64,000 nucleotides of DNA from a virus. Under the pieces are notes generated by a model. The model saw only the letters and a program-made list of their open reading frames with translations. It had not been told where the DNA came from and made no database searches. The position numbers and the translations under genes are program-made. Numbering within the stretch: the first letter of the stretch is position 1; each line of letters opens with the position of its first letter. Location of the stretch: positions 1 through 64,000 of the IMG/VR virus record IMGVR_UViG_3300034283_001962; one strand, given 5' to 3'. Positions 37,091-62,560 of this stretch are shown piece by piece.

Positions 37091-37092
37091 AG

Positions 37093-37166
37093 AACACCTA
37101 GAAAGACTCGAACTTTCACTCTTTTGATCCGTAGTCAAAAGCTTTATCCAATTAAGCTATAGGTGC
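37093..37166 (-). tRNA. tRNA-Arg(ACG)
   Basis: Acceptor GCACCTA/TAGGTGT, anticodon loop CTACGGA on a TTTGA/TCAAA stem, T-arm GAAAG-TTCGAGT-CTTTC. CCA is not encoded. Confidence 0.85.
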
Positions 37167-37171
37167 AGATG

Positions 37172-37243
37172 GGTGGAATTGGGATTCGAACCCAATCAAG
37201 TGATTCACAGTCACCCGTCAGAATCCAGTCTGAACGATTCCAC
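37172..37243 (-). tRNA. tRNA-His(GTG)
   Basis: Acceptor GTGGAAT/ATTCCAC with discriminator C, anticodon loop CTGTGAA, T-arm TTGGG-TTCGAAT-CCCAA. C73 is the typical His identity base. Confidence 0.85.
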
Positions 37244-37244
37244 A

Positions 37245-37318
37245 GTTCCCTTATCTAGGCTCGAACTAGAACTACCAGAGTCAAAATCTGATGTGTTAAC
37301 CATTACACTATAAGGGAA
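37245..37318 (-). tRNA. tRNA-Gln(TTG)
   Basis: Acceptor TTCCCTT/AAGGGAA, anticodon loop TTTTGAC on CAGA/TCTG, T-arm CTAG-TTCGAGC-CTAG. Confidence 0.8.
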
Positions 37319-37334
37319 TAGCATACCATAAAAA

Positions 37335-37408
37335 TGGCACAGGTAGAGAGATTCGAACTCCCAACAGCAGTTTTGGAGACTGACATGATACCATTTCACC
37401 ATACCTGT
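37335..37408 (-). tRNA. tRNA-Trp(CCA)
   Basis: Acceptor ACAGGTA/TACCTGT, anticodon loop CTCCAAA on CAGT/ACTG, T-arm GGGAG-TTCGAAT-CTCTC region. The 3' CCA is encoded in DNA (discriminator G). Confidence 0.85.
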
Positions 37409-37413
37409 TTCTG

Positions 37414-37485
37414 TGGTAAGAAAGGGTAACGATCCCTTCTCCAAGGTTTTTCAGACCTTTGCTAATCCATCTCAGCTATCTTACC
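37414..37485 (-). tRNA. tRNA-Phe(GAA)
   Basis: Acceptor GGTAAGA/TCTTACC with A73, anticodon loop CTGAAAA on AAGGT/ACCTT. The T-loop reads ATCGTTA instead of the usual TTCRANT, with stem AAGGG/CCCTT. Confidence 0.8.
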
Positions 37486-37570
37486 GTAATTTAAAGCATG
37501 TTGTACAAATTCTTCGTTTTCACATTGCAGGTGAATTAAGCCTATGTGTGCTGGCTGCGTAACATGTTAA

Positions 37571-37600
37571 AAGCACTAACCAGATTCGAACTGGTGTGAA
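37571..37600 (-). pseudogene. tRNA 3'-half fragment
   Basis: Minus strand ACCAG-TTCGAAT-CTGGT is a perfect T-arm followed by TAGTGC, like an acceptor 3' strand. No matching 5' half lies upstream, where tRNA-Cys ends directly. Confidence 0.55.
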
Positions 37601-37667
37601 TCCAGTATGAGAATCGAACTCATTTCAATAGTTTTGCAGACTATTTGGCTTCCATAACCTCACTGGA
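37600..37667 (-). tRNA. tRNA-Cys(GCA)
   Basis: Acceptor TCCAGTG/TACTGGA, anticodon loop CTGCAAA on ATAGT/ACTAT, T-arm TGAG-TTCGATT-CTCA. Its 5' part overlaps the end of an HNH remnant. Confidence 0.8.
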
Positions 37668-37772
37668 TAATTTATACCAATTAAAATCTTTTGCCGTTTT
37701 TCTTCTATGACAATTTGCGCATCTTACATCACATTTTTCAATTTCATTTTTTACCTGATTTAAATCGGTCAT
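37641..37772 (-). pseudogene. HNH endonuclease C-terminal remnant
   Basis: A 43-codon frame (ATG at 37772) reads MTDLNQVKNEIEKCDVRCAN followed by CHRRKTAKDFNWYKL. 'EIEKCDVRCANCHRRKT' is the typical end of small phage HNH endonucleases; the N-terminal zinc and catalytic part is missing. It overlaps tRNA-Cys. Confidence 0.65.
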
Positions 37773-37783
37773 AGTGCTATTTG

Positions 37784-37855
37784 ATCCTCGTAAGGTACTC
37801 GAAACCTTTTCCCCAGTTTACAAGACTGGTGCATCACCATATATGCTTACAAGGA
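37784..37855 (-). tRNA. tRNA-Thr(TGT)
   Basis: Acceptor TCCTTGT/ACGAGGA, anticodon loop CTTGTAA on CCAGT/ACTGG, T-loop TTCGAGT. Confidence 0.85.
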
Positions 37856-37859
37856 ATAT

Positions 37860-37936
37860 GTCGAGTAAACAGGAGTCGAACCTGCATGATGTCTTCACCC
37901 CAAATGAAGAGGCTTACCAGTTAGCCCATTACTCGA
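37860..37936 (-). tRNA. tRNA-Pro(TGG)
   Basis: Acceptor TCGAGTA/TACTCGA, anticodon loop TTTGGGG on CTTCA/TGAAG, T-arm GCAGG-TTCGACT-CCTGT. Confidence 0.85.
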
Positions 37937-37945
37937 TGCTATAAA

Positions 37946-37976
37946 ATAAAAAACCCCCGATTTTATGTCGGAGGGT
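37946..37976 (-). terminator. Conditional-looking terminator in the tRNA leader
   Basis: Minus strand ACCCTCCGA pairs with TCGGGGGT (8 bp, one bulge), then six T. Its 5' arm can alternatively pair with GAGGGTGAA upstream (38040-38048), giving a terminator/antiterminator pair. Confidence 0.7.
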
Positions 37977-38108
37977 GAATAGACTTTTTTTAGTCCGTTA
38001 TGCACGAATAGTCTAATTTTTTATGACACATGTACATAGTTCACCCTCTCCACAGATACACTGCGGGGTAAAAGTAAACCACGTATGACGTACTATCTTT
38101 TTCATAAC
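37946..38108 (-). ncRNA. Structured leader RNA / attenuator upstream of eight tRNAs
   Basis: A promoter (38110-38141) should start a transcript near 38105. Over about 160 nt it contains the hairpin CCGCAG-TGTAT-CTGTGG, then GAGGGTGAA (38040-38048) complementary over 9 bp to TTCACCCTC (37971-37979), and finally a terminator that needs the same TTCACCCTC-proximal bases. The two structures exclude each other. It could be a regulated leader for the Pro-to-Arg tRNAs or a stand-alone ncRNA. Confidence 0.5.
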
Positions 38109-38109
38109 A

Positions 38110-38141
38110 CAAACATATGAAGAAATTCTGAAACTTCCAAA
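38110..38141 (-). promoter_or_regulatory. Promoter for the proximal tRNA group
   Basis: Minus strand TTTGGAAGTT, 20 nt, TATGTTTG: a perfect match to TTTG-N20-TAnnTTTG. It lies between tRNA-Tyr and the structured leader. Confidence 0.75.
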
Positions 38142-38154
38142 TTTATTTTTTTTG

Positions 38155-38225
38155 TTGGATAGGAGAGAATCGAACTCTCTTGCCTACGTTTTACAGACGT
38201 TGCTGGTTGCCCTGACCTCTACCCA
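38155..38225 (-). tRNA. tRNA-Tyr(GTA), short variable loop
   Basis: Acceptor TGGGTAG/CTATCCA with A73, anticodon loop CTGTAAA, T-arm GAGAG-TTCGATT-CTCTC. The variable loop is about 5-6 nt, although bacterial tRNA-Tyr normally has a long variable arm. Confidence 0.75.
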
Positions 38226-38230
38226 ATATG

Positions 38231-38319
38231 CGGAGAAAGTGAGACTCGAACTCACACTAGAGTTTTATCCCTAGAACAGTTTAGCAAACTGCTGCAGTAC
38301 CATTATGACTTATTCCTCC
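38231..38319 (-). tRNA. tRNA-Ser(GCT)
   Basis: Acceptor GGAGGAA/TTTCTCC with G73, anticodon loop TTGCTAA, long variable arm CTAG..CTAG as expected for class II, T-arm GTGAG-TTCGAGT-CTCAC. Confidence 0.85.
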
Positions 38320-38324
38320 AAATG

Positions 38325-38408
38325 CGGTGGTAACAGGAATCGAACCTGTATGGCTGTTACACCTTCAACGTTTTCAAGACGCATAAGCCCTCTCTATTGC
38401 GTACCACC
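38325..38408 (-). tRNA. tRNA-Ser(TGA)
   Basis: Acceptor GGTGGTA/TACCACC with G73, anticodon loop CTTGAAA, long variable arm, T-arm ACAGG-TTCGATT-CCTGT. Confidence 0.85.
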
Positions 38409-38413
38409 AATTG

Positions 38414-38487
38414 TAGCTCTGATGAGATTCGAACTCACACAAAACAGATTTTAAGTCTGCCGCCGTTACCAATTAGACCACAGAGCT
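38414..38487 (-). tRNA. tRNA-Leu(TAA), short variable loop
   Basis: Acceptor AGCTCTG/CAGAGCT with A73, anticodon loop CTTAAAA on GCAGA/TCTGT. The variable loop (TTTGT) is only 5 nt, class I, whereas bacterial tRNA-Leu is class II. Identity is inferred from the anticodon. Confidence 0.75.
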
Positions 38488-38490
38488 ATG

Positions 38491-38566
38491 TACCCCTAGC
38501 GAGATTCGAACTCGCAAAACTCCTGATTCTAAGTCAGGCGACTTTACCTAATTTGCCCATAGAGGT
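38491..38566 (-). tRNA. tRNA-Leu(TAG), short variable loop
   Basis: Acceptor ACCTCTA/TAGGGGT with A73, anticodon loop CTTAGAA on CCTGA/TCAGG, variable loop of about 6 nt. Like its neighbour it lacks the class II arm. Confidence 0.75.
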
Positions 38567-38570
38567 ATAT

Positions 38571-38606
38571 AAATAAAAAAACCTAGCTCTTTTAGGAACT
38601 AGGCTT
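38571..38606 (-). terminator. Terminator after the 126-aa coiled-coil gene
   Basis: Minus strand CCTAGTTC / GAGCTAGG stem followed by seven T. It lies between the 126-aa gene and tRNA-Leu(TAG), so those tRNAs need read-through. Confidence 0.7.
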
Positions 38607-38711
38607 TAAGAAGTAGGTTAGAAAAAACCTTACTGTATATAATCCCTGTTCCCTTGATGAATCAAGAGCGATAAACTGGAATAATATGACAGTAATAGAT
38701 TTCTCATTGGA

Positions 38712-39092
38712 TTATCCTTCTACAGAAGTTTCAGGTTCAGTTGGTTCTTCAACTGGATCTACTGGGGGTTCTACTACATCAGTAATAGTACCTTTAAGGT
38801 CAGCAATAGCTAGATCTAATTTATCAGCTACAGCTTGAATTTCTTGTGAAGTTACTGAACTAGCTAATTGAGCTTGAAGATCAGCTACTACAGCTTCAAG
38901 ATCAGTAATTACTTTTGCAATTTGTGCTTGTTCAGCATCAAGAGACAATTGAAGTTCATCTACTTTTGCTGAAAGTTCTTGAATAGTTGCCATTGTTTGT
39001 TTATTTTGTGATTGTATTAAAAATATTTTTTTTACTAAATATACAAGAAATCCTATTGTTAGACTTTGTAAGATTATTATAAATAATAGCAT
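38712..39092 (-). CDS. Membrane-anchored coiled-coil protein, 126 aa
   Basis: Residues 1-26 (LLFIIILQSLTIGFLVYLVKKIFLI) form one membrane segment; residues 35-105 are a continuous coiled coil (IQELSAKVDELQLSLDAEQAQIAKVITDLEAVVADLQAQL) and the tail is Pro/Glu-rich. An internal start at Met34 (MATIQELSAK) would give a soluble version. A spanin-like or virion role is possible but unproven. It has its own promoter at 39111-39142 and sits between tRNA groups. Confidence 0.65.
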   Translation of the reverse strand: MLLFIIILQSLTIGFLVYLVKKIFLIQSQNKQTMATIQELSAKVDELQLSLDAEQAQIAKVITDLEAVVADLQAQLASSVTSQEIQAVADKLDLAIADLKGTITDVVEPPVDPVEEPTEPETSVEG

Positions 39093-39110
39093 AGTATATC
39101 TTTTCTACCA

Positions 39111-39142
39111 CAAATATAAACTTATAATTTGAAACTACCAAA
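39111..39142 (-). promoter_or_regulatory. Promoter of the 126-aa gene
   Basis: Minus strand TTTGGTAGTT, 20 nt, TATATTTG: perfect consensus. The predicted start of transcription falls about 15 nt before the ATG at 39092. Confidence 0.8.
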
Positions 39143-39155
39143 TTAATTTAATATG

Positions 39156-39228
39156 TACTCCTTATTAGACTTGAACTAATAACTTCTTCCATGTAAGGGA
39201 AGCACTCTACCAATTGAGTTAAAGGAGC
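39156..39228 (-). tRNA. tRNA-Val(TAC)
   Basis: Acceptor GCTCCTT/AAGGAGT with A73, anticodon loop CTTACAT on a CTTCC/GGAAG stem, T-loop TTCAAGT. Confidence 0.85.
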
Positions 39229-39233
39229 AAAAG

Positions 39234-39307
39234 TGGAAGTCATGGGTATCGAACCCATCTCAGTTTGCTTGCAAAGCAATCTCGCCAGCCAAGGAACATG
39301 CACCCCC
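39234..39307 (-). tRNA. tRNA-Ala(TGC), degenerate
   Basis: Anticodon loop TTTGCAA on TTGC/GCAA and T-arm ATGGG-TTCGATA-CCCAT are clear. The acceptor GGGGGTG/GACTTCC needs two wobble pairs and one mismatch, and the D-arm is poor. Its first bases abut the terminator of the 48-aa gene. May be decaying. Confidence 0.6.
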
Positions 39308-39334
39308 AAAAAATCAGGACTTTACGCCCTGATT
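39307..39334 (-). terminator. Terminator overlapping the stop of the 48-aa gene
   Basis: Minus strand ATCAGG / CCTGAT hairpin followed by six T; the TGA of the small basic gene lies inside the stem, directly before tRNA-Ala. Confidence 0.7.
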
Positions 39335-39460
39335 AGTTAACTTAAAATAATCTGCTGCAGAAATCCGGTCTCGTACAAAAAGAGAAATAGGATTTGTACG
39401 AGCTGCAGCTTTTCTTTTCTTTTTGCCAAACTTACGTTGGCTTTTTACTTTCTGTGCCAT
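39314..39460 (-). CDS. Small basic protein, 48 aa
   Basis: ATG at 39460, TGA at 39314. Starts MAQKVKSQRKFGKKKRKAAA and is strongly Lys/Arg-rich at the N-terminus, followed by RTNPISLFVRDRISAADYF. It has its own terminator. The composition suggests nucleic-acid or ribosome binding; no family recognised. Codon use and the terminator overlapping its stop support a real gene. Confidence 0.6.
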   Translation of the reverse strand: MAQKVKSQRKFGKKKRKAAARTNPISLFVRDRISAADYFKLTNQGVKS

Positions 39461-39536
39461 GTGAATACTTGGCTACTGTTTTGTCAGTAGTTACCGTATT
39501 CGGCTCATAGAATTCTTCATATTCATATTATTTAAG

Positions 39537-39609
39537 TTGGCATACTCAGACTCGAACTGAGGACTTCTGCAGTATCAGTGCAGTACTCTAACCACTGAGT
39601 TATACGCCA
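39537..39609 (-). tRNA. tRNA-Ile(GAT)
   Basis: Acceptor TGGCGTA/TATGCCA with A73, anticodon loop CTGATAC on CTGCA/TGCAG, T-arm CTCAG-TTCGAGT-CTGAG. Confidence 0.85.
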
Positions 39610-39614
39610 GTATG

Positions 39615-39689
39615 TTGACTCTATCGGATTCGAACCGATGACCTTAACGTTATGAGCGTTCTGCTACTAACCAACTGAGCTAAGAGTCA
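39615..39689 (-). tRNA. tRNA with CAT anticodon (elongator Met or Ile2)
   Basis: Acceptor TGACTCT/AGAGTCA with A73, anticodon loop CTCATAA on AACG/CGTT, T-arm ATCGG-TTCGAAT-CCGAT. If position 34 is lysidine-modified it would read AUA (Ile). Confidence 0.8.
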
Positions 39690-39695
39690 AGAAGC

Positions 39696-39766
39696 CGAGA
39701 GTGGGAGGTTCGAACTCCGACCTTCACATCGACAGTGTGACATGCTCGCCATTACACTACACCCTC
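39696..39766 (-). tRNA. tRNA-Asp(GTC)
   Basis: Acceptor GAGGGTG/CACTCTC with G73, anticodon loop CTGTCGA on TCACA/TGTGA, T-loop TTCGAAC. Confidence 0.85.
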
Positions 39767-39780
39767 GTTTAAATTTATTG

Positions 39781-39853
39781 TACTCTCAACGGGGATTGAA
39801 CCCGTATTGACAGATTGAAAGTCTGTTATCCTGACCAATTAGATGATGAGAGC
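39781..39853 (-). tRNA. tRNA-Glu(TTC)
   Basis: Acceptor GCTCTCA/TGAGAGT, anticodon loop CTTTCAA on CAGA/TCTG, T-arm ACGGG-TTCAATC-CCCGT. Confidence 0.85.
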
Positions 39854-39900
39854 AAAGCTCTTCACCCTCTTTTAGTGAATTTCTCATAATACTATTTTTG

Positions 39901-39974
39901 TGCAGTAAACAAGACTCGAACTTGCAACTTCCACCTTGGCAAGGTGGCACTCTAACCAATTGAGCTATTACTGC
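39901..39974 (-). tRNA. tRNA-Gly(GCC)
   Basis: Acceptor GCAGTAA/TTACTGC with A73, anticodon loop TTGCCAA on CCACC/GGTGG, T-loop TTCGAGT. Confidence 0.85.
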
Positions 39975-39975
39975 G

Positions 39976-40049
39976 TGGAGCAGGTAACCGGGATCGAACC
40001 GACATCAGAAGATTGGAAATCTCCTGCACTACCATTGTGCTATACCTGC
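39976..40049 (-). tRNA. tRNA-Gly(TCC)
   Basis: Acceptor GCAGGTA/TACCTGC with T73 and an encoded CCA, anticodon loop TTTCCAA on GGAGA/TCTTC, T-loop TTCGATC. Confidence 0.85.
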
Positions 40050-40127
40050 ATTTCAGTTTTTCATGAGCCTTGTAGAACTGTAACTACCGCCGGACCTACT
40101 TTCTAGAATTTCCTCCGAACCCCTTTG

Positions 40128-40156
40128 CACCAGATTTTATATCTGGTGTGGTGCTA
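40128..40156. other. Hairpin downstream of the YkuK-like gene
   Basis: CACCAGAT (40129-40136) and ATCTGGTG form an inverted repeat around TTTAT. No clear T run follows, so a processing signal is as likely as a terminator. Bases 40050-40127 show no gene I can name. Confidence 0.4.
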
Positions 40157-40165
40157 CTGTTATCT

Positions 40166-40693
40166 TTAACCTACTTTCCTCAGTAATTCACTAAGTCTAA
40201 GTTCTGTGTAATCTTCTAATGGGATGACACTTAAAGCTTTCTTTCTGATAATGTGATCAGCTGCTTTTGTAGCTATCATTTGTCCACTTTTAAAGATCGG
40301 GACTTGGTTGATTCCTTTAGTCCATCCTTTAAAATCTTGTACCAGTTTTGATGACAGGGTTTTTTTGACATCTGCGAAATCAAACTCAAGCCCTTCAATA
40401 GAGATTGGTATCTCTCTACTGATAAGTTCTGATGTTTCGATTGTCTTAACCCCTTCTTCATATAATCTCAGGTACTCTGTTTTGTACCTTTTTTTCTCAT
40501 CATAATTGAATATATAATGAGCACCTCTTAAACCGTAACGGAAAACTACTACTGTAACAAACTTGGTAAGCTTGTAGTCCTGGGAGTCCGTACCTATCCT
40601 AATAGTCAAGTTGTTGTGTTCATTGACTTGTTCTAGAATATGATCTACCAGATTTACTATAGTACCATCCTCTTTTCTGAAGTACTTTTCCAT
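40166..40693 (-). CDS. YkuK/DUF458-type RNase H-like protein, 175 aa
   Basis: Start taken at MEKYFRKEDGTIVNL (40693); a longer frame would run into the tRNA-Met gene upstream. IRIGTDSQ (about residues 29-36) is the conserved acidic motif of the DUF458/YkuK RNase H-like family, followed by VTVVVFRYGLRGAHYIF. The family is found in Firmicutes and many phages and its function is unsettled, possibly RNA or tRNA processing; its place inside a tRNA cluster fits that. Confidence 0.7.
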   Translation of the reverse strand: MEKYFRKEDGTIVNLVDHILEQVNEHNNLTIRIGTDSQDYKLTKFVTVVVFRYGLRGAHYIFNYDEKKRYKTEYLRLYEEGVKTIETSELISREIPISIEGLEFDFADVKKTLSSKLVQDFKGWTKGINQVPIFKSGQMIATKAADHIIRKKALSVIPLEDYTELRLSELLRKVG

Positions 40694-40706
40694 AACGGTT
40701 TTGTTG

Positions 40707-40780
40707 ATGCAGGGGTGGGCCGACGATCCCACGTATTTCTAGGTTATGAGCCTAGCGAGTCACCTCTACTCTACCCTGCA
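40707..40780 (-). tRNA. tRNA with CAT anticodon, probably Met
   Basis: Acceptor TGCAGGG/CCCTGCA, D-stem GAGT/ACTC, anticodon loop CTCATAA on CTAGG/CCTAG. The T-loop is ATCGTCG(G) on GTGGG/CCCAC, unlike the usual TTCRANT. Initiator versus elongator identity is not clear. Confidence 0.75.
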
Positions 40781-40790
40781 GTTTATAATG

Positions 40791-40862
40791 CGTTCCCACC
40801 AAGACTCGAACTTGGATCAAATGATTAACAGTCACCCGTACTAGCCTTTGTACTATAGGAAC
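40791..40862 (-). tRNA. tRNA-Asn(GTT)
   Basis: Acceptor GTTCCTA/TGGGAAC with G73, anticodon loop CTGTTAA on GTGA/TCAT, T-arm CCAAG-TTCGAGT-CTTGG. Confidence 0.85.
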
Positions 40863-40866
40863 ATTT

Positions 40867-40892
40867 AGTTGTAGCCCCAACAAGGATCGAAC
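40867..40892 (-). pseudogene. Possible tRNA 3'-half fragment
   Basis: Minus strand GAG-TTCGATC-CTT followed by GTTGGGGC looks like a T-loop and acceptor 3' strand, but the stem is weak and no 5' half is present; upstream is an HNH remnant. Confidence 0.4.
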
Positions 40893-40942
40893 TCAGCAAT
40901 TGTTTTTTAAATTATAATGTAGTTTTCTATGACAATTACTGC
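40893..40942 (-). pseudogene. HNH endonuclease C-terminal remnant
   Basis: Minus strand codes CSNCHRKLHYNLKNNC then TGA. CxxCHRKLHYN is a typical HNH C-terminus. It starts abruptly at the tRNA-Arg end, so the rest of the gene is gone. Confidence 0.5.
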
Positions 40943-41013
40943 AGGGTTACGCAGAATCGAACTGCGACTGAAAGATTAGAAGTCTCTCGTTCTATCCATT
41001 AAACTATAACCCC
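40942..41013 (-). tRNA. tRNA-Arg(TCT)
   Basis: Acceptor GGGGTTA/TAACCCT with G73, anticodon loop CTTCTAA, T-arm CGCAG-TTCGATT-CTGCG. Confidence 0.85.
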
Positions 41014-41071
41014 ATTATATTTAAATTCTCAATAACCTTTGTAAATACAACACATTATTTAATTAAACAAG

Positions 41072-41144
41072 TTCCCCCGCTGAGATTCGAACTCAGCCCC
41101 ATAGGTTAAAAGCCTATTGCCTACTACCAGTTTGCTACAGGGGA
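41072..41144 (-). tRNA. tRNA-Lys(TTT)
   Basis: Acceptor TCCCCTG/CGGGGGA with A73, anticodon loop CTTTTAA on ATAGG/CCTAT, T-arm CTGAG-TTCGAAT-CTCAG. Confidence 0.85.
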
Positions 41145-43799: not shown

Positions 43800-44201
43800 A
43801 TGAACATTCTACAGATTGCATCCCTCAGTGAAAGCGGTAAAGTTGGTTACAACACAGCTAACGAAAGTTTCTTTATTCCGGAAAGGCTCCGTGAAGATAT
43901 TAAACCTTTGTCCTATGCGCTGGTTGTTGACCAGAAAATTAACCTGGTCTACAAAAATGCTGCTGGTGATTACACCGACGCTAATGGTAACGTGCTTGAT
44001 GCTGATGCAGACCCAATCCAAACGGGTGAAACAGACATCAGGAAGACAATCAGCTTCGTCGGCTCATTTGCTGATTGCGTTAAAGCCAAGAATCAGCCTG
44101 CTATTCTTGCTAAAGCAGAAAGTAAGCTTATTGATAAGCTTGCTGATGACGCTATGGCTGAATTCGGCTTGACCGCAGAGCAAATGGATGCAACGATTTA
44201 A
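43800..44201 (+). CDS. Unknown protein, 133 aa, with distinct composition
   Basis: Starts MNILQIASLSESGKVGYNTANESFFIPERLREDIKPLSYALVVDQKINLVYKN; acidic middle (DYTDANGNVLDADADPIQTGETD) and helical end. GC content and codon use differ visibly from the AT-rich genes around it. Single gene between the divergence region and a strong terminator, suggesting high, separate expression. No family recognised. Confidence 0.65.
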   Translation: MNILQIASLSESGKVGYNTANESFFIPERLREDIKPLSYALVVDQKINLVYKNAAGDYTDANGNVLDADADPIQTGETDIRKTISFVGSFADCVKAKNQPAILAKAESKLIDKLADDAMAEFGLTAEQMDATI

Positions 44202-44214
44202 TCGTTGTTTCTTT

Positions 44215-44257
44215 AGGAAGGGTGCATCAATTCGGTGCATCCTTCCTTTTATTTTTT
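44215..44257 (+). terminator. Terminator of the 133-aa gene
   Basis: AGGAAGG-GTGCAT / ATGCACC-type stem closed by CCTTCCT with a TTCG-containing loop, then TTTTATTTTTT. Confidence 0.8.
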
Positions 44258-44430
44258 ACTGGCAGGTGTTAAGGCCAGTGCGTTGCTTAATTGCAGGTCA
44301 CCATGACATCCGAAGTTTTCGGTGTTATCATGAGCATTCAAGATGCTTGTGATTGGGATTTCAGGTAAATCCAGCACCAATACGAATTAGTAATACTGTA
44401 TTAGCTAAACGGCTAATACAGTATTTTTAT
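44258..44430 (+). ncRNA. Candidate structured ncRNA with five hairpins
   Basis: Consecutive stems: ACTGGC/GCCAGT (44258-44279), CATGA + CCGAA / TTCGG + TCATG (44302-44332), AGCAT/ATGCT (44333-44347), GGATTT/AAATCC (44356-44372) and a perfect 13-bp terminator stem ATACTGTATTAGC/GCTAATACAGTAT (44393-44424) followed by TTTTT. No convincing open frame covers it and base composition differs from the flanking AT-rich DNA. Function unknown; the promoter is not identified. Confidence 0.6.
44393..44428 (+). terminator. Strong terminator, 13-bp perfect stem
   Basis: ATACTGTATTAGC pairs with GCTAATACAGTAT around a 6-nt loop, then five T. Ends the candidate ncRNA. Confidence 0.85.
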
Positions 44431-51777: not shown

Positions 51778-52662
51778 ATGGAATATATTATAAATCTTAT
51801 TCAAAACAGTCTTATTCCTTCAAGTTTAAATGTTGTTATATCTAAATTTCCAGATGGACAACAGAATGTATCTATTGATAACATTCCAATGAACTTATCA
51901 GCTAATGATAGTGTTATTATTCGCTCCAGATTAAATTCTTGGAAAGACTTGGAGCTAATTGTAGCTACTAATGCTGCAATTCGTAAATTTACTAAGAAAG
52001 TAACATTATATATTCCCTATCTATTAGGTGCACGTTCAGATAGACAATTTTCTAAATATGGTAATTCATATCTTGTTGATGTTTTAGCTCCACATATAAA
52101 TCTATGTGAATTTCAACAAGTAACTGTAGTGGATGTACATAGTGATGTAGCTGCAGCTTGCATTAAGAATCTTGATATTATTTCTAATAACTTCTTTGTT
52201 CAAGAAGCTATAGAAGATATATTTAGGAAGCCTATAAGTGACTTACAAGATGAAATTGTATTTGTTGCTCCTGATGCAGGTGCTGCAAAAAAGGTCTATA
52301 AGTTAGCTAAAGAAATAGGTTTTAAAGGTGATATAGTAGTGTGTTCTAAATATCGTGATGAGGAAGGAGAATTGTCTAATCTATCTATAAATTTAGATAT
52401 TCTTTCTAATTTACATAAAATGTTTATAATTATTGATGATATATGTGATGGAGGTCGTACCTTTATCAATATTTCTGAATATCTAAAAAAAGAATATGGT
52501 ATAGGATTATTTAATAAAGTATTGTTTGTAACACATGGTATATTCTCACAAGGATTTGATCAGTTGTTACAAGAATTTTCAACGATAGCCACTACTAATT
52601 CTTATCAAGACTTTCCTGAAATGGAAGAAAGCCCAAAATTTACACTAATTAATGTAATATAA
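51778..52662 (+). CDS. PRPP-synthetase-like enzyme, candidate ADP-ribose pyrophosphate synthetase, 294 aa
   Basis: Ribose-phosphate pyrophosphokinase fold: YIPYLLGARSDRQF (about 78-91), VVDVHSDVAA (about 117-126), VAPDAGAAKKV (about 163-173) and PRPP-loop IIIDDICDGGRTF (about 217-229). The neighbours, a macro-domain gene and a NAMPT-like gene, are those expected of the phage NAD+ reconstitution pathway NARP1, in which a PRPP-synthetase homologue (Adps) pyrophosphorylates ADP-ribose. Ordinary PRPP synthesis feeding NAMPT is the alternative. Overlaps the macro gene by one base. Confidence 0.85.
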   Translation: MEYIINLIQNSLIPSSLNVVISKFPDGQQNVSIDNIPMNLSANDSVIIRSRLNSWKDLELIVATNAAIRKFTKKVTLYIPYLLGARSDRQFSKYGNSYLVDVLAPHINLCEFQQVTVVDVHSDVAAACIKNLDIISNNFFVQEAIEDIFRKPISDLQDEIVFVAPDAGAAKKVYKLAKEIGFKGDIVVCSKYRDEEGELSNLSINLDILSNLHKMFIIIDDICDGGRTFINISEYLKKEYGIGLFNKVLFVTHGIFSQGFDQLLQEFSTIATTNSYQDFPEMEESPKFTLINVI

Positions 52663-53210
52663 TGCTTGAAAAACAATCATTCATAAATAAAAATCCATTA
52701 ATGAATTATGATGAAATTGATGGTGATTTAATTGAACTAACAAAAGAAGGTAGATTTCAAATTATTGCACATGGATGTAATTGTTTCTGTCGTATGAAAA
52801 GAGGAATTGCTCCTCAAATGGCAGAAGCTTTTAAGTGTGATTATTTTGAATTAGAAGCTGATATGTATGAAGGAGATCCTAATAAATTGGGTCAAATTGA
52901 TTGGGAAACATTACATATTCGTGAAGATGGTTATGTAATTAGAACAAATAAAAGTTACCCTGATACATTAAAAATAGTTGTAATTAATGCCTATACACAA
53001 TATGAATATGATACTACAAAAAAACCATTTGATTACGAAGCATTTACATTATGTATGCGTAAGATAGCTCTTACATTTCCAGGTGGTCATATAGGATTAC
53101 CTAAAATAGGTTCTCATCTTGCTGGTGGTGATTGGAATCAAATCAAACAAATCATACAGAGAGAATTATGTCCTAAAATGCTAGTAACTGTAGTAAATTA
53201 TATATCATGA
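52662..53210 (+). CDS. Macro-domain protein, ADP-ribose-1''-phosphatase-like, 182 aa
   Basis: Macro fold signature: EIDGDLIELTKEGRFQIIAHGCNCFCRMKRGIAPQMAEAF (about 17-56), VINAYTQYEY (about 107-116), and the phosphate-loop GLPKIGSHLAGGDWNQIKQII (about 146-166). This is the Poa1p-like phage subgroup that acts on ADP-ribose phosphates. Between a PRPP-synthetase-like and a NAMPT-like gene it points to ADP-ribose metabolism, perhaps cleaning ADP-ribose 1''-phosphate for re-use. Confidence 0.85.
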   Translation: MLEKQSFINKNPLMNYDEIDGDLIELTKEGRFQIIAHGCNCFCRMKRGIAPQMAEAFKCDYFELEADMYEGDPNKLGQIDWETLHIREDGYVIRTNKSYPDTLKIVVINAYTQYEYDTTKKPFDYEAFTLCMRKIALTFPGGHIGLPKIGSHLAGGDWNQIKQIIQRELCPKMLVTVVNYIS

Positions 53211-53240
53211 ATTATTTAAATTTAAAATAATTTAAAACAA

Positions 53241-53577
53241 ATGAGAATCAATCCTCTTTTACAAACAGACTTTTATAAGGTAAATCATTATAACATGTAC
53301 CCAAAAAGTACAACTAAGATTTATTCTAATTTAACTCCTCGTAAATCGAGAGTTTCAGGAATAAATAAAATAGTTGTATTTGGTATCCAAGCTTTTATCT
53401 TAGATACATTAATAGAGCAATGGAGAGATAATTTCTTTCTAAGGCGTGAATCTATTACTGAGTATAAGCGTATGATGGATGCTACACTTGGTAAAGATGC
53501 TGTTAAAATTGATCATATAGAAGATCTTTGGGATTTAGGGTATCTTCCTTTGCATATCAAAGCTTTACCTGAAGGGT
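53241..53577 (+). CDS. NAMPT/Namat-like gene, exon 1 (N-terminus)
   Basis: Starts MRINPLLQTDFYKVNHYNMYPKSTTKIYSNLTPRKSR, the conserved N-terminus of nicotinamide phosphoribosyltransferases, through GIQAFILDTLIEQW and LPLHIKALPEG. Without splicing the frame ends three codons later. Joining 53577 to 54416 gives LPEG-S-LCPIGVPCLTITNT, as in family members, which fixes the splice sites. The 5' exon ends in T, pairing as U-G with the intron guide GCTCTTT. Confidence 0.85.
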
Positions 53578-53650
53578 TAAAATAATGGCTCTTTTAAAAT
53601 CTATTTAATTGCTGGAACGTCTTAAAAATTAAGAAAATCAGCAGCTAAGA

Positions 53651-53682
53651 TTTGTTTATTTAAATAATATATCTTATATTTG
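53651..53682 (+). promoter_or_regulatory. Promoter of the intronic HNH gene
   Basis: TTTG, 20 nt, TATATTTG, perfect consensus, 19 nt upstream of ATG 53701. It argues against the TTG start inside the -7 box. Confidence 0.7.
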
Positions 53683-53700
53683 TATTATAAAATACTTTAT

Positions 53701-54294
53701 ATGGGATATAATATAGGAAAAAATCATCCGAAATTTATTGATTTAACAGGAAGAAAATTTGGAAAACTTACAGTTTTAGAATATACAGAAATCCAAGAAA
53801 AACATAGTAAAGTTTGGAAATGGAAATGTCAATGTGAATGTGGTAAAATTACATTCACAAGAACTAAAGAATTTCTAAAATTGAAGCCTGTACAGTCTTG
53901 TGCATCTTGTGGTAGAAAAAGAATGGGAATAAAAAGAACTCTTCCAGATAATTTAAGTTTAAAAAATAGAGTTTTTAGAGTTTACAAAAAAGGTGCTAGA
54001 AATAGAGGATATGATTTTAGTTTAACTTTTGAACAAGTTATGAATATTATAAATCAAAAATGTCATTATTGTAATAAATCTCCAGAAAATATTGAAGGAG
54101 AATTTACAAGAAATGGTATAGACAGAAAGGATAATAAACTTGGATACAGTATCGAAAATACAGTTCCTTGCTGCAAAACTTGTAACAAAATGAAAATGGA
54201 TATGGATTATAATGAATTTATAAAACATATTTCCGAAATTTATAAACAAATAAAGTTCAACGACTATCTCGAAAGAGAGTACACTATAAGCTAA
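53701..54294 (+). CDS. Intron-encoded HNH homing endonuclease, 197 aa
   Basis: Starts MGYNIGKNHPKFIDLTGRKFGKLTVLEYTE. Zinc pairs CQCECGK and SCASCGRK lie near residues 43-80, typical of the N-terminal part of this group. The HNH core is CHYCNKSPENIEGEFTRNGIDRKDNKLGYSIENTVPCCKTCNKMKMD (about 121-167) with catalytic region DRKDN. It has its own promoter and would cut intron-less alleles. Confidence 0.85.
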   Translation: MGYNIGKNHPKFIDLTGRKFGKLTVLEYTEIQEKHSKVWKWKCQCECGKITFTRTKEFLKLKPVQSCASCGRKRMGIKRTLPDNLSLKNRVFRVYKKGARNRGYDFSLTFEQVMNIINQKCHYCNKSPENIEGEFTRNGIDRKDNKLGYSIENTVPCCKTCNKMKMDMDYNEFIKHISEIYKQIKFNDYLEREYTIS

Positions 54295-54415
54295 TGATAG
54301 TGGAAAAGGTAGACATCTTTTAAAAGATGAAGATATAGTCTAATCTACATAGTAATATGTAGCAGTTCATAAGAGAACGTGTATAAAAGTTGCGTTTTAT
54401 ACAGAATATAAATTG

Positions 54416-54897
54416 CATTATGTCCTATTGGTGTACCATGTTTAACAATTACCAATACTGTAGATCATGCATATTGGCTTGTAAACTATTTAGAAACTAT
54501 TATTTCAGCTTCAGTATGGCAACCGATAACAAGTGCTACTATAGCATTTGAGTACCGTAAATTGCTTAATAAGTACGCTCTGGAGACTACTGGTACAACA
54601 GATGGTGTACAATGGCAGGGTCATGATTTCTCAATGAGAGGTATGTCTTCTTTACAATCAGCATGTTCTAGTGGTGCAGGTCATTTACTTTCATTTACTG
54701 GAAGTGACACTGTACCTGCTATTTCATTTCTGGAAGAATTCTATAATGCTGATGTTGAGAAAGAATTGATAGGTGCTTCTATACCGGCAACAGAACACAG
54801 TGTAGCTTGTATGAGTAGTAATATAAATCAATATTCACAAGTTGAAGAAGAATTTGATGAATCAATAAATCAATGGAAAATTATCCGTTATTTTTAG
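54416..54897 (+). CDS. NAMPT/Namat-like gene, exon 2 (middle part)
   Basis: From CATTATGTCC it codes SLCPIGVPCLTITNTVDHAYWLVNYLETIISASVWQPITSATIAFEYRKLL, GTTDGVQWQGHDFSMRGMSSLQSACSSGAGHLLSF and IPATEHSVACMSS, with the His equivalent to the phosphorylated active-site His of NAMPT. The tail IIRYF before the TAA is read from the inserted HNH gene, so the true exon is cut off near 54880. Confidence 0.8.
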
Positions 54898-55510
54898 TTC
54901 TTGATAAATTATCTTTTGCCCAAAGAGGTCGTTGATTTGTATAATGAAAACATTTCTTTTGTTCTTCTGGATTAGTTAAATCAAAAGTAAAACACGGTTT
55001 AATATGGTCTATATGCCATTTACCATAGTTTTCCCAAGACATATCTTTATCCATGAGCTTAGAAATATAATCCTTAAAAAAATTAGGAGTACATCCAATA
55101 AGATTAAAGGTTTTATCAGCTTTTCTGTTTCCTTTTAAAGCATGATGAACTCTTCTTCTAAGATTTCTTTTAATTTTAAAAGTAGGATCATTTTTATGTA
55201 AACGTTCCCAATTTTTCTTATACTCTTTAATTTTCAAATTGTTAATATTACGATAATCTTTATCATAATTAGACTTTTCAGATTTATGAGATTTATAATA
55301 AGTTCTTTTAGCTAATCTGTGTTTTTCAATATTTTTTTGATAATGAGATTTGCGAGTTTTATTGAACAAATCAGTGTTATTCTCTCTGTAATTTTTATTA
55401 ATTAAATTAATACAAACTTTACAGATAGAATTATAACCTGATTTAAATCTTTTATTTTTAGGAAAATTATCTAATTCTTTTTCAATATGACATTTTGTAC
55501 ATAATTTCAT
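54881..55510 (-). CDS. Free-standing HNH endonuclease inserted antisense in the NAMPT-like gene, 209 aa
   Basis: Start at MKLCTKCHIEKELDNFPKNKRFKSGYNSICKVCINL, with two CxxC pairs of the usual N-terminal zinc domain. After a very basic middle comes the HNH core MSWENYGKWHIDHIKPCFTFDLTNPEEQKKCFHYTNQRPLWAKDNLSR. No group I intron elements flank it. Its promoter (55515-55546) places the start of transcription almost on the ATG, so the mRNA may be leaderless. Confidence 0.85.
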   Translation of the reverse strand: MKLCTKCHIEKELDNFPKNKRFKSGYNSICKVCINLINKNYRENNTDLFNKTRKSHYQKNIEKHRLAKRTYYKSHKSEKSNYDKDYRNINNLKIKEYKKNWERLHKNDPTFKIKRNLRRRVHHALKGNRKADKTFNLIGCTPNFFKDYISKLMDKDMSWENYGKWHIDHIKPCFTFDLTNPEEQKKCFHYTNQRPLWAKDNLSRTKNNG

Positions 55511-55514
55511 TGTA

Positions 55515-55546
55515 CAAAAATACACAATGTACACATAACTACCAAA
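55515..55546 (-). promoter_or_regulatory. Promoter of the antisense HNH gene
   Basis: Minus strand TTTGGTAGTT, 20 nt, TATTTTTG: perfect, with the same extended -33 box as the tRNA promoters. Confidence 0.75.
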
Positions 55547-55554
55547 TTATTTTT

Positions 55555-56547
55555 ATGGTAAATTCAAAAAAAGTAAGAACTAGATCTATAACAAAAACAG
55601 AACAGTTATTTAAAGGTCAAAAAGATATGTTATTAAGACATTTTCAATTATATCCATCAGGTATTCTTGCTGAAGTTATGGATACTTGGAATCTTTGGCA
55701 AGTTCTTACAGAACTTCTTCCTGATCCTGAAATTAAAGCAGCAATTCTAGCTAGAGATGGTAAGTTAGTTATACGTCCTGATTCTGGTGATCCTGTTGAT
55801 ATTATTTGTGGTAAACCTATTCCAGAATTTAATACATTAGAAGAAGCAGAAAAACATTTTTATAAAAATGTTTTTGTAAATGGGAATATTCTTTTCAGGT
55901 TAAATGGAGAATTAAGACAAGTTATTACTCATTCTGGAAATACATTTATGAGTCAACTTCTTAAGCAATTTCCTCAAGATAAAGGTGTTATTGAATTGCT
56001 TTGGGATGTATTTGGTGGTACAGTAAACGAACAAGGTTATAAAGTACTTGATCCACACATAGGAGCTATTTACGGAGATTCAATTACATTAGGTAGAGCT
56101 ACTGAAATCTGTGAACGTTTAAAAGCTAAAGGGTTTGCAAGTACTAATATTGTATTAGGTATAGGTTCATTTACCTACCAGTACAATACTCGTGATACTT
56201 TTGGGTTTGCTGTTAAAGCTACTTATGGTGAAGTACTTCAAGAAACAGGTGTGATATTAACAACATATCCTTCTAAAAAAGAGATGAAACCTGTAGGTCG
56301 TGAAATCTTTAAAAATCCTATTACTGATGATGGTACTAAGAAATCAGCCAAAGGGTTACTTCGTGTAGATCATGTTGTAAAAGTTGATTCTTTAGGTGAT
56401 GTAGTAAGTCATGAGTATAAACTTGTTGACCAAGTATCTAAAGAAGAGGAAAAGCAAGGAGCATTAGAAACAGTATTTCTTAATGGAAAACTTGTTAAAT
56501 TGCAAAGTTTATCAGAAATTCGCAAAAGATTATCTAAAAACTTATAA
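55555..56547 (+). CDS. NAMPT/Namat-like gene, C-terminal fragment, 330 aa
   Basis: Own ATG at 55555 (MVNSKKVRTRSITKTEQLF), then family sequence: FQLYPSGILAEVMDTWNLWQVLTELLP, KLVIRPDSGDPVDII (phosphate/ribose-binding RPDSG), AIYGDSITLGRATEICERLKAKGFASTNIVLGIGSFTYQYNTRDTFGFAVKATYGEV and FKNPITDDGTKKSAKGLL. N- and C-terminal parts sit on separate polypeptides, both with active-site residues, so a split enzyme may assemble. The upstream DNA is the HNH promoter, not family sequence. Confidence 0.85.
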   Translation: MVNSKKVRTRSITKTEQLFKGQKDMLLRHFQLYPSGILAEVMDTWNLWQVLTELLPDPEIKAAILARDGKLVIRPDSGDPVDIICGKPIPEFNTLEEAEKHFYKNVFVNGNILFRLNGELRQVITHSGNTFMSQLLKQFPQDKGVIELLWDVFGGTVNEQGYKVLDPHIGAIYGDSITLGRATEICERLKAKGFASTNIVLGIGSFTYQYNTRDTFGFAVKATYGEVLQETGVILTTYPSKKEMKPVGREIFKNPITDDGTKKSAKGLLRVDHVVKVDSLGDVVSHEYKLVDQVSKEEEKQGALETVFLNGKLVKLQSLSEIRKRLSKNL

Positions 56548-59579: not shown

Positions 59580-59991
59580 GCAATTGGGGGAGTTATCCCT
59601 TATTACCCAAAATAGCAATTGTTTTCTTTGTTTTCTCAAAACAAAGTGGTGGTAGCTCTAACCTTGGTTAGTTCCCTTTACGGTGCAGAAAGTAATTGAA
59701 TGGGTAAACCAGATAATGAAATTAGTACTAAACATGTGAAACGTTGTAATTATTGAAATTTTGTTTGGACGTGGGTTTAAAGTCGGACCCGCTATATAGG
59801 AATATATAGGCAATAATTGGGAGAATTGCTGGAACGCTAAGGATTTATATCTATGCTAATCAGCAGCCGAGCTTCAAGGAAGTTTGAAGAAGGTTCAGAG
59901 ACTAGGGATACTACGGTAAGCCCATAGCACCCAACATCCAGAACGGATGATGATATAGTCCAACATCTATTGAAAAATAGAGAGTTAAAAG

Positions 59992-60023
59992 TTTGGAGAT
60001 GTAGTATATTTACCCTATCTTCG
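59992..60023 (+). promoter_or_regulatory. Promoter of the intronic LAGLIDADG gene
   Basis: TTTGGAGATG, 20 nt after TTTG, TATCTTCG (one base off), 15 nt upstream of the ATG. Confidence 0.5.
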
Positions 60024-60038
60024 TATTAAATAATACGT

Positions 60039-60440
60039 ATGAACTGGGATTATATTACAGGTTTTTTTGATGCAGATGGTTCTATTAGTTTAGTTCGACA
60101 GAACAAAAATAGAGAACGTGCACCTCAAATTTCATTTCATAATAATGAACTGAATATTCTAGAAAATATTCAAAGTTTTATTAAAAAAGAATTGAATATT
60201 ATAGGTCATATTTCTAAGAAAAAGAAAGCTAAAGAACATCATGGTCAACAATATGATTTAAAGTATCACGGTTTTCCAAAATGTATTGTAATTGGAAGTA
60301 AATTAAGAAGTATTCATCAAAAGAAAATTAAAAGAATACTTTTAAGTGAACTTATTCATAAGATAACTCCTAGAAACGGTAAATATAGTGAACAAACACT
60401 TAAAACCAGATCAGAGTTAGAACTCAAATTTTTAAATTAA
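60039..60440 (+). CDS. LAGLIDADG homing endonuclease, 133 aa
   Basis: Starts MNWDYITGFFDADGSISLVRQ; ITGFFDADGS is the LAGLIDADG motif with catalytic Asp. One motif only, so it should act as a homodimer. It lies 3' of the intron core, ends at the last intron base but one, and has its own promoter. It would spread the intron into tmRNA genes. Confidence 0.85.
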   Translation: MNWDYITGFFDADGSISLVRQNKNRERAPQISFHNNELNILENIQSFIKKELNIIGHISKKKKAKEHHGQQYDLKYHGFPKCIVIGSKLRSIHQKKIKRILLSELIHKITPRNGKYSEQTLKTRSELELKFLN

Positions 60441-60529: not shown

Positions 60530-62560
60530 ATGTATAATGTTAGAATATATGACATTGAGACTCTGAAAGAGTATTTTCTGGTGTGTGTTTATGACCCTAA
60601 TACAAATGAATGGATAGATTTTTCTATTAACAAAAATGTTGATGAGGGGTATAAAATGATTAATTACTTTGAATCACTTAAATGTGATTTTGTAGTTGGT
60701 TATAACAATGTAAACTTTGATGGTCAGATTATAGAATATGTCATCAGAAATTACCACAAATGGACAGATTTAAATAGGCTTGAAATATGTTACAAAATAT
60801 GGCAATATGCTCAAGATGTAATTGATGATATTAATAATGGTTTATTTGCTCCATTCAGAGAAGAACACTTAACAAACCGACAATTAGATCTTTTAAGAGT
60901 TCATCACTTTGACAATGAAGCTAAGAGAACAAGTCTTAAGTGGCTTGAGTTCATGATGGATCTGGAAAATATTCAAGATATGCCAATAGCTCATGATGCA
61001 ACTAATCTTACAGATAAAGATTTAGAAGAGGTTATTATTTATTGTAGAAATGACGTATTAGCTACACATAAGTTTTATAAATATACTATTGGTAATGTTG
61101 AAGATGATTGGGTATTTGCTAATTTATATCAAGGAAAGAATAAAATTCAAGATAGATTAGACTTAATTGAAGAATTTACATTTCCTGCAATAGCTATTAA
61201 CTGGTCAGATGTACGAATAGGTGATGAGATTAATTTAAAAGGGTACTCCTTACGTACAGGTAGAGATAGAAGTGAAGTATATAAGCTCAAGAAACAGCGC
61301 AAACCTACCCGTAAAATCACATTTGGAGAATGTATTCCTGATTACGTACAGTTTGAAACTCCTGAGTTTAAAGCATTTTATAATAGTATTAAGAATGTCA
61401 GGCTTACCTACATGGATAAACAAGAGTTTTTGTTTACTTATAATGGAACAAGATATAATATTGCTAAGGGAGGAATACACTCAACTGAAAAGAAAAGAGC
61501 AATTACTGTTACAGAAAATGAGATACTTAGAGATGCAGATGTAGGTTCACAATACCCTAATGCCATCAAAAAGCGTAAACTGTTTCCTTCTCACTTAGGA
61601 AAAGAATGGTTAGTTAACTACGAAAATACCATTACAAAAAGGATTGAATATAAACATATTGGTACAGCTAAATATAAAGGTTTATCTGATATGCTTAAGC
61701 TTGCTCTAAATGGTGGTGGTTTTGGTAAAACTAATGAAAATACATCTTGGCAATATGATCCTGTAGTTACATTTTATTGTACTATTGGTAATCAGTTTGA
61801 GATTTTAATGCTTATTGAAAGGCTTGAAATGGTTGGAATACATTGTGTATCTGCTAATACAGACGGTATTGTATGTAAATTTCATAAAGAACAGGAAGAA
61901 AAATACAATGAAGTATGTAAATGGTGGGAAGAAACAGTAGGTAATTCTGATCAAGGTAAGCTTGAATATGCTGATTTTAAAGCAATTTATCAAACATCTG
62001 TTAATCATTATATTGCTATTAAAGCTGATGGTTCAACTAAAAAGAAAGGTCAATTTGCTACTGATTTTGAATTTAACAAGAATAAATCAGGAAGAGTTAT
62101 ACCTTTAGCACTTGAAACATATTATAAAGATGGAACAGATCCTATAGAATATTTAAAGAATCATACTAATATTTTTGATTTCTGTATTGGTGTAAAAGGT
62201 AACAAAAAGTATTATTATCGTACTCAAAATTCTGATAATCATCAAACTCTAGATTACTTTGATAAAGTACTTAGATATATTATTACTACAAAAGGTGAAA
62301 TATTATTTAAAGTAAAGAAAAAAGTATATGAATGGGATGGAGGTAATGATATTATGCATTGTGAAGCTCCAGATTCATTTACTGGTAAACAACCTTTAGT
62401 AACAATCTGTAATACAATTGATAAATCTAAAAGTATTAATGAATATAACATTGATTATGATTATTATTTAAAAGAAATAAATACTTTAATCGAACAGATT
62501 AATCGTCAAGGATCTAAGAAAAAAGGTTATAATAATCCTAATCAAATAACTTTATTTTAA
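60530..62560 (+). CDS. Family B DNA polymerase, 676 aa
   Basis: Exonuclease motifs: Exo I YDIETLKEY (D8, E10), Exo II VGYNNVNFDG (about 56-65), Exo III YCRNDVLAT (Y171, D175). Polymerase motifs: A DADVGSQYPNAI (about 335-346), B KLALNGGGFGKTNENT (about 390-404), C SANTDGIVCKF (about 441-451). Palm and exonuclease are complete while the total length is small, similar to protein-primed or reduced crAss-like PolB. Replicates the phage genome. Confidence 0.9.
   Translation: MYNVRIYDIETLKEYFLVCVYDPNTNEWIDFSINKNVDEGYKMINYFESLKCDFVVGYNNVNFDGQIIEYVIRNYHKWTDLNRLEICYKIWQYAQDVIDDINNGLFAPFREEHLTNRQLDLLRVHHFDNEAKRTSLKWLEFMMDLENIQDMPIAHDATNLTDKDLEEVIIYCRNDVLATHKFYKYTIGNVEDDWVFANLYQGKNKIQDRLDLIEEFTFPAIAINWSDVRIGDEINLKGYSLRTGRDRSEVYKLKKQRKPTRKITFGECIPDYVQFETPEFKAFYNSIKNVRLTYMDKQEFLFTYNGTRYNIAKGGIHSTEKKRAITVTENEILRDADVGSQYPNAIKKRKLFPSHLGKEWLVNYENTITKRIEYKHIGTAKYKGLSDMLKLALNGGGFGKTNENTSWQYDPVVTFYCTIGNQFEILMLIERLEMVGIHCVSANTDGIVCKFHKEQEEKYNEVCKWWEETVGNSDQGKLEYADFKAIYQTSVNHYIAIKADGSTKKKGQFATDFEFNKNKSGRVIPLALETYYKDGTDPIEYLKNHTNIFDFCIGVKGNKKYYYRTQNSDNHQTLDYFDKVLRYIITTKGEILFKVKKKVYEWDGGNDIMHCEAPDSFTGKQPLVTICNTIDKSKSINEYNIDYDYYLKEINTLIEQINRQGSKKKGYNNPNQITLF

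What the first reader, a model, noticed from the sequence alone, without database searches (positions are those of the whole stretch)
44258..44430. Strongly structured candidate ncRNA near the divergence point
Five consecutive hairpins end in a 13-bp perfect terminator stem, between two terminators and outside any gene. GC is higher than in the flanks, as expected of a folded RNA.
Basis: seen in the sequence. Interest (0 to 1): 0.6.

Follow-up and report, generated by a model that had tools for sequence, protein, structure and literature searches.

The report
Trimmed pistol ribozyme in crAss-like phage
The stretch holds a short RNA that very probably cuts itself: a slimmed-down relative of the known pistol ribozyme that lacks one of its three stems, found here just in front of a tiny reading frame in a crAss-like phage and also between genes of several unrelated phages, where it probably trims the phage messages.

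Summary
The 118-kb genome is crAss-like. Window 44258-44302, the first two hairpins of the finding, is a compact pistol-type ribozyme core: pseudoknot helix PK ACUGGC/GCCAGU, P2 GGUG/CACC, catalytic UUAAG and GCG, P3, and the G|U cleavage step at 44297|44298. An ATG follows at 44303. It lacks stem P1 and the AUAAA linker of the Rfam pistol model, which scores it far below cut-off (17.6 vs 34.5 bits).

The same P1-less form occurs in at least 7 crAss-like records and a dozen unrelated phage contigs, up to five copies per genome. PK, P2 and P3 covary strongly (12 of 14 pairs changed on both sides). In 23 of 23 elements found without constraining PK, it is fully paired. A model built without crAss-like members finds the window element at E = 5e-7.

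Most likely it self-cleaves and leaves a 5'-OH message with a short leader. Cleavage is untested. The downstream hairpins lie in a possible 21-codon ORF and a terminator. Verdict: new variant of a known kind; no P1-less pistol was found in the papers I could search.

The parts
44258..44263 (+). 5' strand of the pseudoknot helix PK (ACUGGC), in canonical pistols the P1 loop
   Evidence: pairs with 44274-44279; G-C here for A-U in most relatives; PK covaries at 5 of 6 pairs
44265..44268 (+). P2 5' strand (GGUG), one nucleotide after PK, which leaves no room for P1
   Evidence: pairs with 44299-44302; GGUG/CACC, GGGC/GCCC, AGGG/CCCU, GGGG/CCCC and GGGA/UCCC in relatives
44269..44273 (+). UUAAG, counterpart of pistol positions 29-33 with purine 32 (44272) and G33 (44273)
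   Evidence: UUA-R-G invariant in alignment A6; aligned to pistol by the Rfam model
44274..44279 (+). 3' strand of PK (GCCAGU)
44280..44282 (+). GCG, counterpart of pistol G40, C41, G42 (G40 is the general base)
   Evidence: invariant in all aligned members; Rfam alignment; roles from PMC6154101 and PMC10946891
44283..44296 (+). P3 stem-loop (UUGC-UUAAUU-GCAG), shortest form; 14 to 175 nt in relatives
   Evidence: all 4 basal pairs covary
44297..44298 (+). predicted cleavage site G|U
   Evidence: GU in 14 of 14 elements although not required by the test; pistol cleaves at this junction (PMC4604425)
44299..44302 (+). P2 3' strand (CACC)
44303..44368 (+). possible 21-codon ORF MTSEVFGVIMSIQDACDWDFR, start codon 5 nt after the predicted cut
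   Evidence: sequence; no homologue sought, coding status unproven
44215..44247 (+). intrinsic terminator of the upstream gene; its T tract runs up to the ribozyme
44392..44425 (+). second intrinsic terminator
43800..44201 (+). first gene of the rightward (early) strand, 133 aa, GC-rich, no detectable homologue

Best explanation
Window 44258-44302 encodes a P1-less pistol-type self-cleaving ribozyme. When RNA polymerase reads past the first terminator, or starts near it, the transcript folds into PK, P2 and P3. PK is a plain 6-bp hairpin here, because the stem P1 that normally closes over its 5' strand is absent; P2 then makes the pseudoknot. G44280 (G40), A44272 (position 32) and G44273 (G33) line up around G44297-U44298, which is cut by 2'-OH attack. 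The 3' product starts with a 5'-OH at UCACC-AUG, a message with a 5-nt leader for a possible 21-codon frame that ends before the second terminator. The most likely role is processing of a phage early transcript, separating upstream RNA from the next reading frame. Shown: conservation, covariation of all three helices, presence of the catalytic nucleotides, absence of P1, position before reading frames. Inferred: cleavage, the cut site, transcription and the processing role.
For: Rfam's Pistol model, although below cut-off, aligns window 44263-44302 to its positions 22-68, with UUARG, GCG and GGU in register; 14 of 38 hits to a pattern that leaves P2 and everything 3' free pass a combined P3+P2 geometry test (shuffled mean 0.28, maximum 3 in 200), and all 14 have GU at the junction. 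(19 sequences): 99.2% of cells paired, 12 of 14 pairs changed on both sides, covariation score 0.764 against 0.205 shuffled and 0.06-0.14 slid. PK fully paired in 23 of 23 elements found without constraining either PK strand (re-dealt mean 4.9, maximum 11). Held-out test: model R2, built without crAss-like members, finds the window at 38.1 bits, E = 5.3e-7, among 225 kb searched. Related phages carry canonical pistols whose linker holds the same AGGUGUUAGG (L033) or close to it (L127), also just 5' of genes. Seven TerL-positive crAss-like records besides the window's carry the P1-less form.
Against: No cleavage or transcription data. In a canonical pistol, disrupting P1 strongly lowers activity (PMC4604425), so the variant must compensate. 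P3 in the window is minimal (4 pairs, one of them U-G). An alternative fold pairs GGUGUU (44265-44270) with AGCACC further 3' and is the MFE structure. The downstream ORF is tiny and may not be real. The element lies behind a strong terminator, so its transcription is uncertain; no convincing promoter was found.
Confidence: 0.77

Rival explanations
1. A conserved pseudoknot that does not cut but controls translation or stability of the next gene, for example by binding a protein or ligand.
For: It sits just 5' of reading frames in most members, as a translational control element would.
Against: The invariant positions are exactly the pistol catalytic ones, including the GU junction and purine 32. 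The genes that follow are unrelated to one another by eye, and P3 ranges from 14 to 175 nt, which fits a ribozyme better than a specific sensor.
Confidence: 0.1
2. A ribozyme relic in this genome: the family is active elsewhere, but this copy has lost activity.
For: Shortest P3 of the crAss-like set, single copy in the genome, only a 21-codon frame behind it.
Against: Every conserved nucleotide and pair is intact, and PK even shows a compensatory change (G-C for A-U); held-out model score 38.1 bits, the best of the crAss-like set.
Confidence: 0.09
3. A stand-alone small regulatory RNA of about 170 nt ending at 44425.
For: Strong 3' terminator and many hairpins.
Against: Conservation was seen only in 44257-44306; the 3' hairpins have no counterpart in the relatives inspected and modest folding significance. 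The 3' cleavage product could still act as a small RNA; this is not excluded.
Confidence: 0.04

Closest known systems
Pistol ribozyme (Rfam RF02679; Harris et al. 2015, PMC4604425)
   Same: Helices PK, P2 and P3 in the same relative arrangement; UUA-purine-G, GCG and GU in register; phage context; canonical copies in related phages stand at the same kind of site (L127:1100-1164, G016:3479-3536).
   Different: No P1 and no AUAAA linker: PK 5' strand and P2 5' strand are one nucleotide apart. PK is a hairpin rather than a loop-junction contact; 17.6 bits against a cut-off of 34.5.
Pseudoknot hammerhead ribozyme (PMC11300833)
   Same: Pistol-like connectivity, including a 6-bp pseudoknot helix.
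   Different: The window element has no CUGANGA core, and the pseudoknot hammerhead retains the stem equivalent to P1.
Theta (HDV-like) ribozymes of gut phages (PMC10879173)
   Same: Small self-cleaving ribozymes in gut phage genomes with a proposed RNA-processing role.
   Different: Unrelated fold; per title and abstract linked to tRNA-based recoding, not to the 5' side of protein-coding genes.

Membership tests
Pistol ribozyme (RF02679) | G40-C41-G42 directly 3' of the PK strand | tested here: met
   44280-44282 GCG; invariant in all aligned members; in register in the Rfam alignment
Pistol ribozyme (RF02679) | purine at 32 followed by G33 | tested here: met
   A44272-G44273; A or G in all 14 elements that pass the geometry test although the pattern allowed any base at 32
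Pistol ribozyme (RF02679) | two-nucleotide cleavage junction (usually GU) linking P3 and P2 | tested here: met
   G44297-U44298; GU in 14 of 14
Pistol ribozyme (RF02679) | six-pair PK helix with the P2/P3 junction | tested here: met
   6 of 6 pairs; covariation
Pistol ribozyme (RF02679) | P2 and P3 helices | tested here: met
Pistol ribozyme (RF02679) | P1 stem closing over the PK 5' strand | tested here: not met
   one nucleotide (A44264) between PK and P2; the same one-nucleotide spacing in the relatives
Pistol ribozyme (RF02679) | AUAAA linker between P1 and P2 | tested here: not met
   absent in the window; present in the canonical copies in L127 and L033
Pistol ribozyme (RF02679) | score at or above the Rfam gathering threshold | tested here: not met
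   17.6 against 34.5 bits; P1-less elements also missed at that threshold
Pistol ribozyme (RF02679) | Mg2+-dependent self-cleavage giving 5'-OH and 2',3'-cyclic phosphate ends | not testable with these tools
   needs an in vitro cleavage assay
Hammerhead ribozyme (including the pseudoknot form) | CUGANGA core | tested here: not met
   no CUGANGA in 44257-44306; no Rfam hammerhead hit at the gathering threshold

The most novel reading that the evidence does not exclude
A distinct P1-less pistol subclass is used by crAss-like phages and unrelated phages as a repeated intercistronic cutting device: up to five copies per genome, often starting right at the stop codon of one gene and cutting shortly before the next, so that polycistronic RNA is turned into separate 5'-OH short-leader messages without a protein nuclease.
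Probability: 0.45. Interest if true: 0.82.

Novelty: new variant of a known kind. Interest (0 to 1): 0.68.

Why it matters
P1 is reported as very important for pistol activity, yet a whole set of natural sequences does without it while keeping the catalytic nucleotides. That gives a smaller pistol core to test and shows that a standard library search misses this form. The biological role of most small phage ribozymes is unknown; repeated copies between genes, shortly before start codons, make an mRNA-processing role directly testable.

Tried and rejected
Rfam at gathering threshold: nothing at the site. Other sub-threshold Rfam hits (microRNA, ctRNA, tracrRNA): no counterpart in relatives, treated as chance. 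BLAST of the element against phages and plasmids: only a 27-nt chance match. Relatives of the 133-aa gene: none. The L039 17-mer match lies in unrelated sequence and was dropped. A minus-strand frame of 45 codons (44249-44386) looked protein-like but has no ATG near its start and no support. MFE folding as main evidence: rejected because the pseudoknot is invisible to it and the terminator dominates the z-score. Genome-wide z-score scan timed out and was replaced by a GC-corrected energy ranking. Pattern hits L121, L125, L130, L131, L140-L147, L154-L175 and L177: no P2/P3/PK geometry, chance. Clostridia genomes (391): no match, but the search had no positive control.

Full report
What was checked first. 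The interval lies between two good intrinsic terminators (44215-44247 and 44392-44425), just downstream of the first rightward gene (43800-44201, 133 aa) near the point where the leftward tRNA and late block meets the rightward early block. The genome is a 118,407-base virus record with a Crassvirus major capsid protein and matching terminase and portal proteins. The 173-nt stretch folds better than all 200 shuffles (z -5.5), but without the terminator z is -2.1, and its GC-corrected energy ranks 42nd of 2366 sampled genome windows. Folding alone would have left the case weak.

Relatives. The upstream protein has no detectable homologue. Terminase-based relatives gave the break: a BLAST of the region against those loci hit L068 and L056/L059 with ACTAGC-AGGTGTTARG-GCTAGT-GCG, a compensatory change of the first hairpin and a conserved loop. 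A pattern scan returned about ten independent copies in viral contigs. Nearly all are followed by a variable stem, then GGTCACC, then usually a start codon 10-40 nt on. Seven of the records carry a crAss-like terminase.

What it is. One related contig, L127, holds both this element and a curated Rfam Pistol ribozyme (47.3 bits), and a second canonical pistol lies in G016/L033 (44.6 bits). Side by side the linker of the canonical copies, AUAAAC-AGGUGUUAGG in L033, contains the loop of our element. In ours the first hairpin is the pistol pseudoknot helix, with the P1 stem and the AUAAA stretch missing. Rfam's own model aligns window 44263-44302 to its positions 22-68, far below cut-off because the first third is absent. 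Published roles fit: purine 32, G33, G40, C41 and G42 around a GU cleavage step (PMC6154101, PMC10946891), with three stems and a pseudoknot in the canonical form (PMC4604425).

Unbiased tests. (1) A second pattern left P2 and everything downstream free. Of 38 distinct hits (the window included), 14 had a P3 starting right after GCG, a two-base junction and a strand complementary to P2; shuffling gave 0.28 on average and 3 at most. All 14 had GU at the junction, which the test did not ask for. (2) Pair counts on 13 sequences and on a wider set of 19 give 99% pairing and covariation far above shuffled and slid controls; all three helices covary. The rows in those alignments had the middle of P3 cut out to a common length, so only the four basal P3 pairs were counted. 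(3) Model R1 found further copies in the same genomes with other PK sequences. A third pattern with a free PK gave 23 elements, 14 distinct PK pairs, all fully paired. (4) A model built only from non-crAss-like members (R2) finds the window at 38.1 bits, E = 5.3e-7. The aligned members carry a single nucleotide between PK and P2, so P1 cannot form.

Context. In the crAss-like phages whose neighbourhood was read, the element stands a short way into the rightward strand, behind the first few genes; in the window, L117, L120, L123, L124 and L126 a T tract, in most of them that of a terminator-like hairpin, runs up to it. In the other phages it often begins within a few bases of an upstream stop codon (17 of 40 elements within 12 nt), and a reading frame of 20 codons or more begins within 80 nt after the predicted cut in 38 of 40. 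That last figure used permissive start codons and had no control, so it is descriptive only. Copy numbers reach five in one 68-kb record. The window genome has one copy.

How it probably works. Inferred from the pistol family: the RNA folds, G|U at 44297|44298 is cut, and the 3' product begins UCACC-AUG. A processing role in separating early transcripts is the simplest reading of the repeated intergenic placement. Regulation by the alternative pairing seen in the MFE fold (GGUGUU with AGCACC) is possible but has no comparative support.

Known or new. I searched the held open-access papers and found no pistol without P1; the original 2015 discovery paper was not read and most subscription papers are not held, so prior description cannot be excluded. 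In a canonical pistol, P1 disruption causes substantial loss of activity (PMC4604425). Because defining features (P1, AUAAA linker, Rfam score) were tested and not met, I call it a pistol-type, P1-less variant and not a canonical pistol.

Noticed in passing
window 51778-56547: A Prs-like phosphoribosyl gene (51778-52662) next to a nicotinamide phosphoribosyltransferase gene split in three (53241-53585 NAMPT_N, 54562-54897, 55495-56547 NAPRTase), with ORFs that by eye look like homing endonucleases between the pieces: an NAD+ salvage pair with apparent intron or endonuclease insertions.
   Followed up: partly
window 59767-60440: Group I intron (Rfam, 91.9 bits) followed by a LAGLIDADG endonuclease ORF, just before the DNA polymerase gene at 60530.
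   Followed up: no
window 37092-41144: Cluster of 23 tRNA genes on the minus strand.
   Followed up: no
window 43800-44201; L021:10678-11163; L117:6215-6616: The first rightward gene near the divergence point is a small protein of about 130 aa in each genome; it is GC-rich in the window and in G005, and the window and G005 proteins show no similarity.
   Followed up: partly
L206:5324-5405: A type-P5 twister ribozyme about 0.4 kb upstream of a P1-less pistol element on the same strand: two ribozyme classes in one phage region.
   Followed up: no
L118 and L120, P3 of the element: P3 carries a conserved internal loop (AGAAA opposite GAGUAA) that is not seen in the other members.
   Followed up: no
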